From Trichococcus palustris (GTDB taxonomy: Bacteria > Bacillota > Bacilli > Lactobacillales > Aerococcaceae): DNA of 64,000 nucleotides. The stretch covers positions 186,001 through 250,000 of the forward strand of contig NZ_FOTD01000002.1 of the NCBI RefSeq assembly GCF_900114465.1, given 5' to 3'. The translations under genes and the position numbers were made by a program. Below are positions 382 through 48,740 of this stretch, piece after piece. Position 1 is the stretch's first letter, and the number at the start of each line of letters is the position of its first letter. The notes under the pieces were generated by a model. It worked only from the letters and a program-made list of their open reading frames with translations. It did no database searches and was not told where the DNA came from.

Positions 382-420
382 CGTAGGATAAGGTGTTATT
401 CAATTTTTAGAGCCAGTCGA

Positions 421-592
421 GCGAGACCTCATCGGGAATTCCAATATCTTCTAAAGGCATATTACCGATGGACGGCTTCGCCGGGGATCCCGGTATCATC
501 TGATTGGATTTTCCCGGCGAGCATAACCTCATCGGGAAATCCATTATCTTCCAAGGGCATATTACCGGTGAACGAGGCTTCGCCGGGAATCG
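421..592. repeat. Two ~75-bp palindromic repeat units, 100-bp period
   Basis: Two imperfect direct copies lie exactly about 100 bp apart: CCTCATCGGGAA at 427 and 527, GGCATATTACCG at 456 and 556, GCTTCGCCGGG at 475 and 577. The second copy has terminal inverted repeats (TTCCCGGCGA at 511, TTCGCCGGGAA at 579), so it is a small palindromic element of about 80 bp. Short ORFs across it on both strands are by-products of the repeat. No transposase is nearby; it resembles a REP/MITE-like intergenic element. Confidence 0.75.
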
Positions 593-727: not shown

Positions 728-893
728 CTTCTTAGTGCTCGGTTTCTACCTAGGTATTCATCTCGCTCTATCTCAAACGCGTTCTGATTTGCAGGGGATT
801 CCGTCTAAGCTGGCTAATCCGCATGGGCAAAATCAGCCCATTTGCGGTTAGCCTTCTTAGTACTCATCCCCTAACGCAAATCATCTCGCTCTA
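728..893. repeat. Hairpin array A, one complete unit plus a partial one, ending at the gor stop codon
   Basis: The complete unit has outer arms GATTTGC-AGGGGAT (768-781) and ATCCCCT-AAC-GCAAATC (865-881), i.e. two helical segments with an AAC bulge on one side, and inside it a second hairpin (GGCTAATCCGC / GCGGTTAGCC). It is bordered on both sides by the linker TCTCGCTCTATCTC, which on the left continues into AAACGCGTTCT. A leftover 3' half of another unit lies at 728-757. The right-hand linker contains the reverse complement of the gor stop codon. Architecture is the same as array B at 46.9-47.7 kb. Confidence 0.8.
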
Positions 894-6604: not shown

Positions 6605-6862
6605 TTGGGCGCGGAGGAGCATCGTAGTCCAGAATAACCCGCCGAAAGTGGTTCGGCGGGTTAAAATACAGCGGTTTCCACAGAATAACCTTCCGTAGGC
6701 ACCGCGGAAGGTTATTCTTGGGGTGGAGCAATCCGAAAAACCCGGCGACGCCTTTTCGGAAGGTTTTCCCGACATTATCTGGACCAAATAACCCACCGCT
6801 GCTGCCCCCTAACCATCAACCGAAAAAATGGAATGCAGGGATTCACGAATGGAACATTTCGC
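6605..6862. repeat. Structured ~260-bp intergenic repeat, copy 1
   Basis: This stretch matches 42825-43086 over its whole length with interspersed differences. It contains at least three hairpins: AACCCGCCGAA/TTCGGCGGGTT at 6636-6662, AGAATAACCTTCCG/CGGAAGGTTATTCT (roughly) at 6682-6718, and a third G/C-rich one around 6735-6780, and then the shared tail GAATGGAACATT. It lies between convergent genes (hydrolase and gcvPB). No ORF is conserved between the two copies, so it is not protein-coding. Confidence 0.85.
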
Positions 6863-17615: not shown

Positions 17616-19303
17616 TAGGTGTGGAAACTCGTGACTTCAGTCATGAGAGGAAACACCTACGGTCTCAACTCCTTTGTTTTAAAGTATAGCCGTATCCGTC
17701 ATTCCTTTGGATGATGCGGCAATGTTTGTAACTAACCCCTTGCACAACTAATCCGGTGCTTTGGATGTTGAAATAACCGCTTTTGCGAACAGCCACTCGT
17801 CCGAGGTGAATGCCTTTCTTCTTGCCGTTTGGCACGGTTGCTCGGACGACGTCGCCCGTCTGAAAGCTGAAAAACTGCTTTTGGCGTGTCAGTTGCTTGG
17901 TGATGATGCCGCAACTGTTCGTCCGGCCGCGGAACCGGCTGCCTCGTCCATAGGACTTGATGCACAAAACCTTGTCTGTTACCAAACGATAGCCGCTGGA
18001 AGGGATTCTGCCAACGCATAAAGCGTCATAATAGTGTTCTTTCGGCAACCCCATGCCGGTCGTGCGGTTGTATTGCGTCTGTCCGCCGGTGCCTTGGCTT
18101 ATGTGTGGCAACAACTTTTCTAAGTCAGCCACCAAATGGTGTCGCATGCTGTTGGCCCAAGCCGCATAGCGCAGACCGATGAACGTTTTGTTTGTCCTTA
18201 GGATTTGCTCTATCCGTTTAATGCGCGTCTGGTCGAGTTTGGTTTTGGAGCTTTTTAGCCGCTCCACGTATTCGGCCAGCGTGCGATTGTCCTTATCCTG
18301 ATTGCACGTATGACAGGCTACATTCAAGTTGCTCAGGCGGTCGGAACCGCCGCGGGACTTGGGATGCATATGCTCCACTTCCAGATGTTTGTCTTGGGAG
18401 AGGCCACCGCAATATTGACAGGCATGGCCTTTCTTTTCCAACAGGTAATGGCGGATTTCGTAACCCATCAACGTGCCTTGCTGGTAGACCACGTCCGTAA
18501 TGGAAGCATTCTCCATCTTCTGCATGTCGAATTTGACGGATTCCACCGCCGCCAACTGAATCATGCAGAGATTTCGCATTTTCTTGACGAAATGTACGAT
18601 ATCCTGCTCAATCGACACAACGGACGGCGGTAGCCATCCCTCCGGTCTGCGGGTATCCGCGTTGAATTTAGAATCCTTCTTTTTAAAGCTATTTCCCCAC
18701 TTGGGTTTACGGTACCGCGTCTGCAATAAAGCAACGATGCGCTCTCCGCGGTGTTCCAGTTCGGCAAAGAAAACCGCATGGGCTTCACTGTCTACTAAGG
18801 CAACGCCTGTTATTTTGGCGCCCGGGTCCAACTTAATCTGATACGTTTTGTCGGCGGTGTGCGCCGCATTGTCCTTCAACCGGATGGTAAAGGGGTACTG
18901 CTTATGTATGGTTGCCGAGCCGTCACGAAGAAGTATCCGTGCTTTTGCAGGCGTACAGTTGTCCATTGGTTGTTTTTGTTTGCTTAACACGAATACCATT
19001 TCGTTCAGCTCCTTTTTGCATTTATTTTACAATCAAAAATAAAACTATCTCTATCTGTCGAATGAAGCTGGCAGACAGGTAACGGAGGCCGTTCGGCCTC
19101 TCTCTCCTCGACAAAGTTAAAAAAGTTTTTTACATCAGCAGCACGGCCCTAACCCTTCGGACTGTTTAGACTGCTGACCATGACTGTTCCTGCTGGAGAA
19201 GCACAAGAGACCATGATGGCTAATTTAACGTAGCTCCCGCAAAGCGGAAACTGAGTCTGCTCAACTAAGGCTTTTACAAGCCTACGACTTCAGTCGTGGG
19301 TAG
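17616..19303 (-). mobile_element. IscB element (IS200/IS605-like ends, no TnpA)
   Basis: The element is bounded by two subterminal hairpins that share the core GACTTCAGTC: the left one, 17616-17659, has arms TAGGTGT and ACACCTA plus CTCGTGAC/GTCATGAG; the right one, 19282-19303, reads CCTACGACTTCAGTCGTGGG. Such imperfect palindromes at both ends are how IS200/IS605-superfamily elements are recognised by TnpA. Only iscB and its RNA are inside, so mobility would need TnpA in trans. It is oriented leftwards. Flanks are different broken genes (yjbQ left, VOC right). Confidence 0.85.
17665..18999 (-). CDS. iscB: IscB, RNA-guided RuvC-HNH endonuclease
   Basis: IscB proteins are the Cas9 ancestors that cleave DNA with an omega-RNA encoded just upstream. 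The 444 residues show the PLMP-type N-terminus (VLSKQKQPMDNC ... YPFTIRL), RuvC-I DPGAKITG with Asp58, RuvC-II with Glu153 (AAVESVKF), an HNH domain with zinc pairs Cys194/Cys197 and Cys229/Cys232 and catalytic EHMHP (His210), and RuvC-III HYYDA (His322, Asp325). All catalytic residues are intact. Oddity: the arginine-rich bridge helix expected between ELEHRG (80-85) and TRYRKP (94-99) is almost absent, only eight residues remaining. ATG behind AAAGGAG. Activity is therefore uncertain although the family call is firm. Confidence 0.93.
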   Translation of the reverse strand: MVFVLSKQKQPMDNCTPAKARILLRDGSATIHKQYPFTIRLKDNAAHTADKTYQIKLDPGAKITGVALVDSEAHAVFFAELEHRGERIVALLQTRYRKPKWGNSFKKKDSKFNADTRRPEGWLPPSVVSIEQDIVHFVKKMRNLCMIQLAAVESVKFDMQKMENASITDVVYQQGTLMGYEIRHYLLEKKGHACQYCGGLSQDKHLEVEHMHPKSRGGSDRLSNLNVACHTCNQDKDNRTLAEYVERLKSSKTKLDQTRIKRIEQILRTNKTFIGLRYAAWANSMRHHLVADLEKLLPHISQGTGGQTQYNRTTGMGLPKEHYYDALCVGRIPSSGYRLVTDKVLCIKSYGRGSRFRGRTNSCGIITKQLTRQKQFFSFQTGDVVRATVPNGKKKGIHLGRVAVRKSGYFNIQSTGLVVQGVSYKHCRIIQRNDGYGYTLKQRS

Positions 19304-19320
19304 TTGACGATCAGATTTTT
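19010..19320 (-). ncRNA. Omega-RNA of IscB with 5' guide from the flank
   Basis: The 300 bp upstream of iscB are non-coding and rich in hairpins on the minus strand: CCCACGACTGAAGTCGTAGG (element end), GGCTTGTAAAAGCC, CCGCTTTGCGGG, a long GTCAGCAG ... CTGCTGAT pairing, and GGCCGAACGGCC near iscB. This matches the position and style of IscB omega-RNAs (once listed as HEARO RNA). In this class the guide lies 5' of the scaffold, i.e. just outside the element end at about 19304-19320, taken from the broken VOC gene. Extent of the RNA is estimated. Confidence 0.75.
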
Positions 19321-42607: not shown

Positions 42608-42824
42608 ATTCTTCCTCGTTTCTTCAAGATGATAGAGCCATTATAACATATGGCACTGCAGTGTTTCTATGGTTAAGCGCTTCATTTGCGAACTACCGGA
42701 ATACTTGGCACACTGCATTCCTCATGAAGCACGCATTTGTAAGGTTTTTACACCATTATAAAAATAGCATGAGAATAACGTCAACTGGGGCTGTCTAATA
42801 TCGGGATAGGCCCATTCATGCATT
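42608..42824. other. Intergenic stretch right of rpiA
   Basis: AT-rich bases that should hold the rpiA promoter, leading into structured repeat copy 2. No gene or clear motif was seen. Confidence 0.4.
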
Positions 42825-43086
42825 TTTTTGGATACGAGGATTGTGTAGTTCCGATCGGCATAACCCGCCGAAAGCGGTCCGGCGGGTTAAAATACAGCGT
42901 TCTCCACAGAATAACCCGCCGAAGGTTCGACGGAAGGTTATTCTCGCGATGGAGCAATCAAAAAAACCGTCGCCGACTTTTTGGAGGGTTTTTCCGACGG
43001 TATCTGGGCCAAATAACCCACCGCGATCCCCGATTCGGTGGCAACTGGAAACAGGGAATGCAGGAATTCTCGAATGGAACATTCCA
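42825..43086. repeat. Structured ~260-bp intergenic repeat, copy 2
   Basis: Homologous to 6605-6862 from end to end. Hairpin 1 is AACCCGCCG/CGGCGGGTT (42862-42888), hairpin 2 AGAATAACC/GGTTATTCT (42908-42944 region), hairpin 3 ACCGTCG/CGACGGT, hairpin 4 CCACCG/CGGTGG, then the common tail GAATGGAACATTC. Here it lies between divergent genes, directly before the sdaAB promoter region. Confidence 0.85.
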
Positions 43087-43117
43087 GAATGACCTGGCTT
43101 AGAAGTCTGAGAATAGC

Positions 43118-43225
43118 AAAAAAAGGTTGTCTCAATGAGAGACAACCCCTTCCGAAAACTAAAAATACTATGAAAAAAAGACCATTTCGGGTATTTTCCG
43201 CCCCTCTTTTCGCTATAATGGATGA
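43118..43225 (+). promoter_or_regulatory. sdaAB upstream hairpin and promoter
   Basis: A hairpin GGTTGTCTC/GAGAGACAACC (about 43124-43147) is followed after 65 bp by a TATAAT -10 box at 43214-43219; no good -35 is at 17 bp (GTATTT). The -10 lies 43 bp before the sdaAB start. Confidence 0.5.
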
Positions 43226-45083: not shown

Positions 45084-46263
45084 CTAACACGGTCGTAGAT
45101 ACTTTGTCTGCTCCTCGACTGCCCACGGTAGGAAATCGCCGTACAGCGTTTTGCTGAGGATATTCTTGGCACCGTGGATGTCACGATGGCTTGTGTAGCC
45201 GCAGGAACAACGGACATTACGACCGTTGTGTTTCTTGCGAGTATGGCAAACAGGACATGTTTGCGTGCTGTAGGCTTCGTCCACCTTTTGGATGTCGATG
45301 CCTTCGGTCCTTGCTTTGTAGGTCAAATAAGCCATTAGTTTGCCGAAGCTCCAATTGGATAGTTTTTGCGTCACTTTCTTCCTTTTCTTTCCTTTAGTGT
45401 TGCGTTCGACGCCTTCTACATCACCAACGTAGACAGTGGAAACCTGCTGTGCAACACACCAATCCACAAAATTTTTGGTTGTCTTGTGCAGGGCATCCTG
45501 CAGTTGGCGGGTGCTTTTGGTGCGAACGAAATTTTTGGCTTTTTGGTATTTTTTCCATTGGCGCGAGCCTTTTTTGCACTTCGATTGCAGCCGTTGCAGT
45601 TCGGCTAATTTCTTGTTGCGTAATTGGTGGATGCTGCGCACCTTCCGCCCGCTAATCAGAACGGAAGCACCGTCTTCCGCAAAAGACGCAATGCTGTGGA
45701 TTTCGCCCAAGTCAACAGATGCCGCCTGCTGCTGTTTCAAGGGCGGGTTTTCAATCCCATCGTCGTAGGTAATGGACAAATAATAATGCGTGTCATGGCA
45801 CAGTTCCACTTCCTTGATGGTCTTGACGGCAATGCCGTCCAAGCCGGACACCTGCAATTTCAGCGGCGGTTGGCGTTTGCCGTTTCGGATGCCAAGCGAC
45901 AGGGTGACGACGTTGCCCTCAATGGAGAACGCTTTTCCGACCCACTTGGTGTTGAAGAAAAACTTCTCCTTGTAGGGGTAACGGACGTCCTTGCGCCCGG
46001 CGGTTTTGGCTTCCTTCGCGGCCAGACGCGCATTCAGGTACTTGTGGGCGACGGCTTGGATGCTCTGGCTGTGCAATGCAACCCGTTTGTTTGGTTTCCG
46101 TCTGCAGCTGGTTCTTGCCTATCCATTTGCCTGTGGCGAGATGATGGTCTTTGGCTTTCTGCAAGCACAGGTTCCAGACTTCGGCGGAAGCTTTGTTGCA
46201 GGCATCCAGCATGTGCTTCAGTTTCGTTTGGTTCCGAATCAGCAATCGTTTCCCGTGGTACAT
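45084..46263 (-). pseudogene. tnpB: TnpB (RNA-guided transposon endonuclease), one frameshift
   Basis: The gene starts at 46263 (MYHGKRLLIRNQTKLKH, with GGAAGGAGGAG before it) and runs to about residue 60 (TETK), then the frame changes near 46085-46095 and continues as NKRVALHSQSIQAV to the stop at 45084. The long second part carries RuvC-I VDLGEIHS, RuvC-II VYVGDVEGV, a zinc finger CPVC ... CSCG, and RuvC-III HRDIHGAKN, all intact. One extra A in ACCAAACAAACGG would explain the shift. A TATAAT -10 stands at about 46296. Total length about 393 codons, normal for TnpB. Confidence 0.85.
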
Positions 46264-46509: not shown

Positions 46510-46887
46510 TCATTTTTTTGTAGCGATGGCTTCGATTTCGATGACGGCATCTTTCGGCAACGCTGCCACCTGAACCAAGGCGCGCGCTGGTTTATGTTCT
46601 CCGAAGAATGCCGCATATGCCTCATTGATGGCATCGAAGTCATTGATATCCTTCACGAACACATTTACCTTCAGGATTGATTTCAACGATCCACCGCCCG
46701 CTTCCACAATCGCCAAGACGTTCGTCAAGCTGGCCGTCGTTGCAGCTGCTGGTTCCGTTACAAGCTCATTTGTCGCCATATCAATCGGTAATTGTCCTGA
46801 AGCAAAGATGAACCCATTTTTGCGCGTTCCTTGCGAATAAGGACCGATAGCCGCAGGTGCTTTTTCTGTTGCGATGAATTTTGTCAT
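46510..46887 (-). CDS. ridA: RidA family reactive intermediate/imine deaminase
   Basis: RidA hydrolyses 2-aminoacrylate and other enamines released by PLP or Fe-S dehydratases, protecting PLP enzymes. The 125-residue protein shows IGPYSQG (14-20), GFIFASGQLPID (25-36), the conserved Arg in KPARALVQVAALP (about 99-111), and EIEAIA at the end. ATG at 46887 behind GAGGG. It lies next to sdaAB-sdaAA, whose reaction makes its substrate, though on the opposite strand with the TnpB element in between. Confidence 0.95.
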   Translation of the reverse strand: MTKFIATEKAPAAIGPYSQGTRKNGFIFASGQLPIDMATNELVTEPAAATTASLTNVLAIVEAGGGSLKSILKVNVFVKDINDFDAINEAYAAFFGEHKPARALVQVAALPKDAVIEIEAIATKK

Positions 46888-46969
46888 AATATTACCCTCT
46901 TCCAGTGATATTTAATCTTTTTCTAATGATAGCATATCCCGCTGTCTATTGGAAAGCTATAACTTCTGG

Positions 46970-47672
46970 ATTGGGATTTGTCATAACTCTTGATATTTTA
47001 ATCGCTTAATCCTGTCATGAGGTTTTCTAAAACACACAGCAGTAAGGCCCTCTGATATCGCACTGTGACATCCACTTGCGACCACAGGGGGCTTACCTTA
47101 CACACTGTTTAAACGTGTTCTAAATCCCAGAAATCTGTGCCTAAGTTGACTACCACACGCGGACAAAAAGCGTCCGCTTCGTGTTAGTCCTCTTAGTGCT
47201 CGATTCCTGAACGGGATTTGTCATGACTCTTGCGATTTTAATCGCTTGGAGACATGATACACTTGGGCGCTTACGACCACAGTGCTACCTTACTCTCTTT
47301 TTAAACGTGTTCCAAAAAGCAGACCTGAAGTCACTTCACGAATAATGCTCAGATGGTCTGCGACCATCCTCCGCTTATCCGCTCCAGTGATTCTGGTCTG
47401 ATCGCTTTTTGTCGCACTCTGTCTTAAACGTGTTCTGAAAGTCAACTCCGGCATGTGTTTCGCCTTTTTCTGCGGTTGCTCTGCGAGCAATCCTCAAAAA
47501 AGGTTCCAACGCTCCGGAGTTAAACGACTTTCATCGCACTCTGTCTTAAACGTGTTCTGAATTGCAGACACCACTCCCGTTTCGAAACTGGCTTTCGTTC
47601 ACAAAAGTGGTGAACGAAAAGCCAGTTTCTCCAACGTCCGGGTGTCTAAACGCAATTCATCGCACTCTGTCA
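46970..47672. repeat. Hairpin array B, four complete long hairpins with conserved linkers
   Basis: Four hairpins of 95-110 bp have outer arms that differ in sequence but not in plan: H1 AAATCCC/GGGATTT (47122-47221), H2 AAAAAGC/GCTTTTT (47314-47409), H3 GAAAGTC/GACTTTC (47427-47533), H4 GAATTGC/GCAATTC (47549-47657). Next to each first arm is a second pair (AGACC/GGTCT, ACTCCGG/CCGGAGT, AGACACC/GGGTGTCT) and on the right side a 4-nt bulge (GAAC, GATC, AAAC, AAAC). Each hairpin has an inner hairpin. Linkers are TCGCACTCTGTC plus TTAAACGTGTTCT; left of H1 and H2 a longer ~95-bp linker occurs twice. The right-hand linker ends in the potD stop codon. Confidence 0.85.
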
Positions 47673-48740
47673 TTTTCTGTACATTTTTATTTCCAGGAAT
47701 AGATCGTTGTAGAGGCTCAGTGATTTTGATCCCAGATTTTTGTAGACTTCCAGTTTATCAAGAATGTCATCGGCCGGATAGAATTGTTCATCGCTGGTTA
47801 TTTCCGGATCAAGCAGTTCGATGGCGGCTTTATTCGGTGTGGCATAGCCGACATATTCGGCATTGATGGCCGCATTTTCCGGATCCAGCATAAAATTGAT
47901 GAAGGCGTATGCCCCCTCGAGGTTTTTGGCTGTCTTTGGAATGACGATGTTATCGAACCACAAGTTGGATCCCTCTTCGGGAATGACATAGTGCAGATGC
48001 TCGTTTTCCAAAAGCATCTCACTGGCTTCCCCGGAGAAAGTGACCGCCAGCGGGGCTTCTCCTTGGATCATATACATTTTGATTTCATCGGCAACAATGG
48101 CCTTCACATTCGGCATGAGTTCCTTTAATTTATCGGCTGTCTTAGCCAGGATGAGCGGATCCGTCTCGTTCAGGGAATAGCCTTCACTCTGGAGGCCTAT
48201 TCCCATGGCCTCCCTGGCACCATCGATCAAGAGCACGCTGTTTTTGTACGACGGGTCCCATAGATCATTCCAGGATGTGATGTCTTCGGAGACCATCGTA
48301 TCATTGTAGATGACTCCCAAGGTACCCCAGAAATAGGGGATGGAATAGGTGTTGCCGGGATCGAAGGGTTGATCCAGGAAACGGGAGTCGATATTTTCCA
48401 ATCCGACGATTTTGGAATGGTCCAGTTCAATCAATAGGTCTTCTTCCGCCATCTTATCAATCATGTATTCGGAAGGGATGGTCAGATCGTAGGCCGTTCC
48501 GCCTTGCTTTACTTTTGTATACATCGCTTCATTTGAATCAAAGGTTTCATAGGAAACTTTATAGCCCGTCTCTTCTTCGAATTTTGTAATCAATTCCGGG
48601 TCGATATAATCACCCCAGTTATAGATCGTCAACGTATTGCCGGAGGAAAAGCCTTGCGATCGGTTCAAGGCTGCGATGCCAAACGCCAAACCGGCACAAA
48701 CAACCAAAATAGCTGCTGCCAGACCCAATAATTTTTTCAT
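47670..48740 (-). CDS. potD: Spermidine/putrescine ABC transporter, substrate-binding protein
   Basis: Extracellular polyamine-binding protein, 356 residues. An N-terminal hydrophobic segment (3-25) without a good lipobox suggests a membrane-anchored form, as in other Lactobacillales PotD. The mature part begins TLTIYNWGDYIDPELI, typical of PotD/PotF, and contains WNDLWDPSYKNSVLLID and FINFMLDPENA. Follows potC with one base between. Last gene of potR-A-B-C-D; its stop is inside the linker of hairpin array B. Confidence 0.95.
   Translation of the reverse strand: MKKLLGLAAAILVVCAGLAFGIAALNRSQGFSSGNTLTIYNWGDYIDPELITKFEEETGYKVSYETFDSNEAMYTKVKQGGTAYDLTIPSEYMIDKMAEEDLLIELDHSKIVGLENIDSRFLDQPFDPGNTYSIPYFWGTLGVIYNDTMVSEDITSWNDLWDPSYKNSVLLIDGAREAMGIGLQSEGYSLNETDPLILAKTADKLKELMPNVKAIVADEIKMYMIQGEAPLAVTFSGEASEMLLENEHLHYVIPEEGSNLWFDNIVIPKTAKNLEGAYAFINFMLDPENAAINAEYVGYATPNKAAIELLDPEITSDEQFYPADDILDKLEVYKNLGSKSLSLYNDLFLEIKMYRK

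What the first reader, a model, noticed from the sequence alone, without database searches (positions are those of the whole stretch)
46970..47672. Array of long hairpins with changing arms but constant architecture and linkers
Four consecutive hairpins (H1-H4, see feature) have completely different arm sequences, yet each keeps: outer arm of ~7 bp, a one-sided 3-4 nt bulge (GAAC, GATC, AAAC, AAAC), a second helical segment, and an inner hairpin. The linkers are almost invariant (TCGCACTCTGTC, AAACGTGTTCT). Changing both arms together while keeping pairing is what covariation under selection looks like, so the structure rather than the sequence is kept. This is not a CRISPR array (units are palindromes of ~100 bp, no spacers) and not a protein-coding repeat. 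I know of no named element with this plan.
Basis: partly seen in the sequence, partly recalled or inferred. Interest (0 to 1): 0.87.

Follow-up and report, generated by a model that had tools for sequence, protein, structure and literature searches.

The report
Covarying hairpin cassettes at gene ends
Many low-GC Gram-positive bacteria carry, right after the stop codons of ordinary genes, strings of long RNA-like hairpins that share one precise shape but not their sequence, a family I did not find in Rfam or in the papers I searched.

Summary
On the minus strand four ~122-nt units (47109-47669) start at the potD stop codon. Each is one long hairpin: P0, tandem GA/GA, 8-bp P1, 4-nt bulge (often GUUU), P2, P3, GGA/GA, P4. 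The 'linkers' are the outer helix. Each arm type is also a dispersed repeat in this genome, so the four hairpins alone prove nothing. Across genera the case is strong: in a plain MAFFT alignment of 40 diverse units, 28 of 31 pairs change on both sides (covariation score 0.763; shuffles 0.206), while GA/GA stays in 38 of 40 and GGA/GA in 37. The model hits 66 of 295 genomes of the order and, more weakly, 5 outside it. Of 104 arrays, 84 follow a co-directional gene; 65 begin within -20..+40 nt of its stop codon. Rfam, plasmids and phages gave nothing; Y1/RAYT transposase shows no association (27 of 66 carriers, 93 of 229 others). Sister species differ by whole units. Best reading: an array-forming 3'-UTR hairpin cassette of Bacilli whose sense-strand fold is selected and which spreads like REP elements. 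Its molecular job (mRNA 3'-end protection or processing, versus a DNA mobility signal) is inferred, not shown.

The parts
47546..47669 (-). Unit 4 (first unit in RNA sense), type I inner loop; starts directly after the potD stop codon
   Evidence: R1 122.2 bits; fold z -7.9
47424..47543 (-). Unit 3, type I
   Evidence: R1 110.3 bits
47301..47421 (-). Unit 2, type I ('type B'), the arm type shared most with other genera
   Evidence: R1 107.4 bits; query 271-392 hits in G023, G027, G058, G044
47109..47230 (-). Unit 1, type II inner loop; its 5' outer-helix strand is interrupted by a nested smaller repeat
   Evidence: R2 122.2 bits; nesting by eye, as in L167 against L166
47231..47300 (-). Nested ~70-nt repeat in the outer strand of unit 1; the same kind of repeat lies inside units of other loci
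   Evidence: by eye
46966..47108 (-). Related nested repeat plus remnant of a further type II unit (P1 strand AAATCCC..CAGAAGT)
   Evidence: by eye
47670..48740 (-). potD-like gene; its stop codon 47670-47672 abuts the array
   Evidence: ORF; name recalled, not searched
46510..46887 (-). RidA-like gene downstream of the array
   Evidence: ORF; name recalled, not searched
773..893 (-). Single type II unit whose first bases TAG are the stop codon of a glutathione-reductase-like gene
   Evidence: R2 125.1 bits
891..2282 (-). Glutathione-reductase-like gene (ends ..[11 protein letters not shown])
   Evidence: 464-codon ORF ending 3 nt inside the unit; C-terminus; name recalled, not searched

Best explanation
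This is one array of a family of ~117-124-nt hairpin cassettes, found through much of its order and in a few other Bacilli, that live in the 3' untranslated region of genes: they start at or a few nt after the stop codon and are often followed by an intrinsic terminator. SHOWN: the fold (P0, tandem GA/GA, P1, 4-nt bulge, P2, P3, GGA/GA, P4) is kept by compensatory change; the orientation is mostly that of the upstream gene; units form arrays with almost no spacer; unit content differs between close relatives. INFERRED: selection acts on the sense-strand fold, most simply on the RNA, through a factor that reads the two tandem G.A elements and the bulge; the hairpin acts as a barrier or processing signal that protects or trims the mRNA 3' end, as has been proposed for REP hairpins; the cassette spreads because a copy that lands between a stop codon and a terminator is harmless or useful. 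How units are copied to new genes is not known.
For: Covariation on a structure-blind alignment: 92.6% standard pairs against 63.0 +/- 0.9 in shuffles, 28 of 31 pairs changed on both sides, score 0.763 against 0.206 +/- 0.012 and at most 0.175 when slid. GA/GA in 38 of 40 and GGA/GA in 37 of 40 units while the helices vary. Spread: R1 in 66 of 295 genomes of the order, 30 of 74 genera; 5 genomes outside the order among 398 of the class. Position: of 104 arrays the upstream ORF is co-directional in 84, opposite in 16, not called in 4; 65 start -20..+40 nt from the co-directional stop codon, 39 of 84 within -3..+5. One array per 16-nt context: 70, 14 and 4 of 88, with 55 within -20..+40. For 40 convergent pairs the median distance is 4 nt on the 5' side and 87.5 nt on the 3' side. 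Terminator-like sites within 220 nt: sense downstream 43 of 102, sense upstream 2 of 101. Wobble outside P0: G.U 26 against A.C 11.
Against: No expression data. G.U pairs are few for an RNA (7 of 597 cells in P1 and P2), and among nearest neighbours new G.U (82) hardly exceeds A.C (69), so the strand argument is weak and a DNA-level constraint fits nearly as well. The units lack a U-tract, so they are not terminators themselves, and 59 of 102 have no terminator-like site within 220 nt downstream; antisense terminator-like sites also lie downstream in 23 of 102. In 14 of 40 convergent pairs the 5' side is not the closer one. 229 of 295 genomes of the order gave no match, so the element is not essential.
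Confidence: 0.5

Rival explanations
1. A DNA-level selfish element: the sense strand, when single-stranded, folds into a hairpin that an unidentified transposase or recombinase reads; insertion right behind stop codons is a target preference or what survives.
For: Many dispersed copies per genome (62 blastn matches; 72 R1 matches); orthologous genes with full, partial or no units; few G.U pairs and little recent G.U over A.C excess; scattered distribution.
Against: No partner gene found; Y1 transposase shows no association with carriers; no clear target-site duplication; no blastn match in plasmids or phages; strong orientation with the upstream gene is unusual for a transposon.
Confidence: 0.35
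2. REP/REPIN element mobilised by a RAYT (Y1 HUH) transposase.
For: Extragenic, palindromic, high copy, behind genes.
Against: PF01797 is found in 27 of 66 carriers and 93 of 229 other genomes of the same sample, odds ratio 1.01; none of the 6 Y1 loci of the own genome carries an R1 unit; units are ~120 nt; GTAG/CGTC near an end in only 7 of 40.
Confidence: 0.04
3. Palindromes kept in register by template switching during replication (quasipalindrome correction), without any function.
For: 71 double Watson-Crick changes among 3961 pair cells of 134 nearest-neighbour pairs, against about 3 expected from independent change by my arithmetic.
Against: Correction would erase mismatches and bulges, yet GA/GA, GGA/GA and the bulge persist across genera; 227 one-sided changes in the same pairs show that mutations arrive one at a time; it does not explain position or orientation.
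Confidence: 0.08
4. Recent tandem duplication of ordinary terminators with no constraint on structure.
For: Some arrays do contain near-identical tandem copies (L126 units 2-4); terminator-like sites follow many arrays.
Against: Units have no U-tract; cross-genus covariation and loop conservation.
Confidence: 0.02

Closest known systems
REP / BIME / REPIN repeats with RAYT (TnpA-REP)
   Same: Dispersed extragenic palindromes in many copies; proposed roles in mRNA stabilisation and as mobile DNA (starts of abstracts seen; details recalled).
   Different: ~120 nt with several conserved internal loops, mostly fixed orientation to the upstream gene, near-spacerless tandem arrays, no association with Y1 transposase, arms covary even within one genome.
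Integron attC sites
   Same: Arms vary while an imperfect hairpin with bulges is kept; tandem arrays with turnover (recalled).
   Different: R boxes at both ends in 0 of 40 units on either strand; no cassette genes; located behind genes.
MITEs and modular repeats such as RUP and BOX of pneumococcus
   Same: Small, non-coding, dispersed, hairpin-forming (recalled; only the RUP and pneumococcal-repeat references were seen, in PMC2267715).
   Different: Weak terminal complementarity (3.5 of 10 end bases), no clear target duplication, structural covariation across an order.
L17 downstream element, Lacto-rpoB and other Lactobacillales RNA motifs (PMC2864571, passages seen)
   Same: Structured elements near genes, listed for the order Lactobacillales.
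   Different: No Rfam family matched the units; this one sits behind many unrelated genes and forms arrays. Lacto-int of the same table has no Rfam number there and was not compared.

Membership tests
REP/RAYT | Y1 (PF01797) transposase in the genomes that carry the repeat | tested here: not met
   27 of 66 carriers against 93 of 229 others
REP/RAYT | Repeats flank the RAYT gene | tested here: not met
   no R1 unit in the 6 own-genome Y1 loci L050-L055, 1.5 kb each side
REP/RAYT | 20-40 nt palindrome with GTAG or CGTC tag | tested here: not met
   units 117-124 nt; tag near an end in 7 of 40
Integron attC | RYYYAAC / GTTRRRY boxes at the two ends (motifs recalled) | tested here: not met
   0 of 40 on either strand
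Integron attC | integron integrase in the genome | not tested
   no search made
MITE | terminal inverted repeats and target-site duplication | tested here: inconclusive
   first and last 10 nt match at 3.5 of 10; longest shared flank 4.2 nt against 3.7 +/- 0.14 in shuffles, but flanks often begin with truncated units
CRISPR array | identical short repeats separated by unique spacers | tested here: not met
   units differ and lie head to tail without spacers
Intrinsic terminator | hairpin followed directly by a U-tract | tested here: not met
   unit tails read GAACACGTTTAA and variants; separate terminator-like sites follow 43 of 102 arrays
Any Rfam 15 family | match at the gathering score | tested here: not met
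   whole window: only HEARO at 19096-19308; 8 loci at E<=1: one place, microRNA family mir-3926 on both strands, far below its gathering score
Structured RNA element (general) | covariation beyond shuffled and slid controls | tested here: met
Structured RNA element (general) | transcription of the element | not testable with these tools
   no RNA-seq held

The most novel reading that the evidence does not exclude
A new class of structure-defined 3'-UTR cassettes in Bacilli: hairpins recognised through two tandem G.A elements and a 4-nt bulge rather than by sequence, strung head to tail behind stop codons, gained and lost one unit at a time by a machinery that is not Y1 transposase, and acting on the mRNA 3' end of many unrelated genes.
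Probability: 0.35. Interest if true: 0.88.

Novelty: new variant of a known kind. Interest (0 to 1): 0.75.

Why it matters
If true, a large group of bacteria carries dozens of copies of an undescribed structured element at the 3' ends of housekeeping genes such as groEL, gatB and gor-like genes. That would matter for how mRNA ends are protected, for genome annotation and assembly, and for the question of how structure alone can be maintained through near-total change of sequence within one genome. It offers a natural experiment: the same gene with zero, one or several units in sister species.

Tried and rejected
RAYT/REP origin: rejected on presence/absence of PF01797. attC: rejected on end boxes. 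Known RNA family: no match. Plasmid or phage carriage: no blastn match with one 591-base query (no structure search there). Target-site duplication: inconclusive, because flanks often begin with truncated units. Cassette reordering: gatB arrays alpha-beta-gamma (L172) and gamma-alpha-beta (L168) first looked like shuffling, but L172 goes on with truncated alpha and beta, so duplication plus deletion explains it (by eye). Pristine empty sites: behind the gene facing mgtE the apparent empty sites seem to keep a unit remnant, and at gor L195 is ambiguous, so an insertion event is not proven; potD L097 against L095 shows a one-unit difference whose direction is unknown. Kink-turn: considered for the tandem G.A elements; the inner one has 1 rather than 3 extra nt, so not claimed. 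The genome-contig scan returned 8 stretches and is used for names alone. Literature: nine listings (one search found no paper) and passages of two papers showed no description; most subscription papers and all preprints are outside that library, so absence from print is not established.

Rows dropped and limits: the arrays start from the 153 matches (E up to 0.01), less three partial or cut-off ones, plus window, L161, L163, L164 and L165 matches; L158 and L162 were entered and dropped as duplicates of L107 and L122; L159 and L160, which repeat L071 and L099, were not entered. L070 and L117 are one place counted twice, and several arrays lie behind orthologous genes of sister species; therefore recounts one array per 16-nt context. 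In one search, 150 aligned rows were cut to 93 at 85% identity. One search kept 48 non-redundant upstream ORFs (90 codons or more, -20..+60 nt); 10 of them were given, and the alignment of all 48 was not searched further. The order and class searches scored at most 12 and 8 candidates per genome.

Full report
CHECK OF THE OBSERVATION. The window holds four long hairpins at 47109-47230, 47301-47421, 47424-47543 and 47546-47669. Each folds better than all 200 dinucleotide shuffles, as plus-strand DNA and as minus-strand RNA. The stretch 46970-47108 is something else: by eye, a smaller nested repeat and the remnant of a further unit. The best reading strand is the minus strand, because the array begins at the stop codon of a potD-like gene (47670-47672) and ends before a RidA-like gene on the same strand (both names recalled).

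A CAUTION FIRST. A blastn of the array against its own genome gives 62 matches, the array itself and one match within it included; the others are 76-100% identical, and each unit matches separately. So the different arms of H1-H4 could simply be different repeat families. The inference of covariation from four hairpins was not safe by itself and needed wider data.

ANATOMY. Reading 49 own-genome stretches gave a common plan, in minus-strand (sense) order: P0 of about 4 bp, two facing GA steps, P1 of 8 bp, a bulge of mostly 4 nt on the 5' side, P2 of 7 bp, P3 of 4 bp, an internal loop GGA facing GA, P4 of about 8 bp, and a variable tip. A second inner version (type II, GAGCACUAAG...) shares P1, bulge and P2. 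Units are 117-124 nt in the 40-unit set and in the arrays printed follow each other with 0-3 nt between them unless a smaller repeat is nested. Two registers of P0 are possible; 77.5% of cells pair in the first, and I could not choose between it and the second.

COVARIATION. I aligned 40 diverse type I units from the window, own-genome and sister loci and other genera with MAFFT, which knows nothing of structure, and counted pairs for the structure I named: 92.6% of cells pair (shuffles 63.0 +/- 0.9, 0 of 500 reach it), 28 of 31 pairs have changes on both sides, score 0.763 (shuffles 0.206 +/- 0.012; slid versions at most 0.175). In the same units GA/GA is present in 38 of 40 and GGA/GA in 37 of 40; the bulge is GTTT in 18 and begins with G in 37. 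The structure-led alignment of 150 matches, cut to 93 non-redundant, agrees: 2085 Watson-Crick, 85 G.U, 49 A.C and 125 other cells.

SPREAD. Model R1 (type I) matches 66 of 295 genomes of the order at E<=1e-3, in 30 of 74 genera (at most 12 candidates scored per genome, so these are lower bounds). Model R2 (type II) matches 13 of 13 genomes of the genus, 8 to 54 times each. In the own genome R1 gives 72 matches. Among 398 genomes of the class at E<=1e-5 there are 7: the own genome, one of its family and five outside the order. For 4 of the 6 loci outside the order that I printed, my ORF script puts a stop codon within 3 nt of the unit start (L222, L224, L225, L229; not L223, L226; L222 and L225 come from one genus and look like the same gene). 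Names come from one pattern scan: Desemzia incerta, Lacticigenium naphthae, Fundicoccus ignavus, a record called Streptococcus sp. 263_SSPC whose unit is the same as one in G170 of the own family, and a Sporosarcina psychrophila MAG. That the order is Lactobacillales and the own genus Trichococcus is my inference.

POSITION. I took 104 arrays (42 own, 62 from other genomes) and called ORFs mechanically. The gene on the 5' side is co-directional in 84, opposite in 16, not called in 4. Sixty-five start -20..+40 nt from the stop codon of the co-directional ORF, and 39 of 84 within -3..+5. These are not all independent: one place is counted twice and several are orthologs in sister species. One array per 16-nt context leaves 88: 70 co-directional, 14 opposite, 4 not called, 55 within -20..+40 and 32 within -3..+5. 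In the 40 convergent pairs the median distance is 4 nt on the 5' side and 87.5 nt on the 3' side, with the 5' side closer in 26. A terminator-like site lies within 220 nt downstream on the sense strand in 43 of 102 and on the antisense strand in 23 of 102; upstream the figures are 2 and 4 of 101. Genes concerned are ordinary: among ten tested, GroEL, GatB, MgtE, lipoate ligase, PatB, FliY and MetQ families.

TURNOVER. Read by eye: behind gatB and behind groEL all 11 fetched congeners each have units starting at or within about 8 nt of the stop codon, but differing in number and kind; behind gor, of nine fetched, four have a full-length unit and five only remnants or nothing; behind potD, of eleven congeners, two have full units, two a remnant and seven none. 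L095 differs from L097 by one unit next to the stop codon. Smaller repeats are nested inside units (L167 against L166). These facts show whole-unit differences between sisters but not the direction of change or the enzyme.

WHICH STRAND, WHICH MOLECULE. If the sense strand folds, G.U (G.T) should be tolerated more than A.C. In the 40-unit set it is 26 to 11 (one-sided P 0.010); in the 93-unit set without P0 it is 62 to 26 (an alignment that leans to the structure). Among 134 nearest-neighbour pairs, however, one-sided changes give 82 G.U, 69 A.C and 76 other mismatches, with 71 double Watson-Crick changes and 13 other double changes. So long-term selection favours the sense strand modestly, while recent mutations show little preference. 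The low G.U content is unusual for RNA. I therefore hold RNA function and DNA mobility as near rivals, and prefer RNA because of position and orientation.

WHAT IT IS NOT. Rfam: no match. Y1 transposase: found in 27 of 66 carriers and in 93 of 229 other genomes of the same sample, so no association, and no R1 unit beside the six Y1 genes of the own genome. attC boxes: 0 of 40. Plasmids and phages: no blastn match. Papers: listings of nine searches and passages of two papers gave no description.

VERDICT. A real structural repeat family, spread through much of its order and probably through more of Bacilli, that I could not match to anything named. It works like REP hairpins behind genes, with arrays that turn over like cassettes. 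It is a member of none of the families tested. Its function remains an inference.

Noticed in passing
window 19096-19308 (-): HEARO RNA (RF02033, 99.3 bits), an RNA associated with an HNH-endonuclease ORF; the neighbouring ORF was not examined.
   Followed up: no
window 45084-46076 (-): TnpB-like ORF (330 aa, name recalled); whether a Y1 gene lies beside it was not examined.
   Followed up: no
window 47231-47300; L167, L168, L180, L181; L024, L035, L170: Two smaller repeats (about 70 nt GCACTGTGACC..CCATGAC, and one with CTCAAACGTCGCACTGTGACGTTTGAG) sit nested inside units, often replacing one strand of a helix.
   Followed up: partly
window 418-591, 6632-6858, 42823-43150: Other dispersed palindromic repeats, the last two rich in GGCGGGTTA; a similar CCCGCC repeat stands where the array would be behind potD in L087, L092 and L096.
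   Followed up: no
L025:1240-1360: A unit whose inner hairpin is inverted relative to its kin, so the inner part can flip.
   Followed up: partly
L001, L005, L008, L009, L015, L016: Contigs C36, C13, C10, C5, C27 and C16 of the own genome end in, or within a few hundred bases of, units; the assembly seems to break at these repeats.
   Followed up: no
L014, L100, L101, L109 downstream flanks: Type B units are followed in several genera by the same kind of linker and terminator (GAGGC..GGAC..GTCC..GCCTC and a T-run), as if hairpin plus terminator travelled as one 3'-end module.
   Followed up: partly
L044:1102-1222: The upstream gene ends on a TGA that lies inside the unit (GAGAGTGTGATGA).
   Followed up: no
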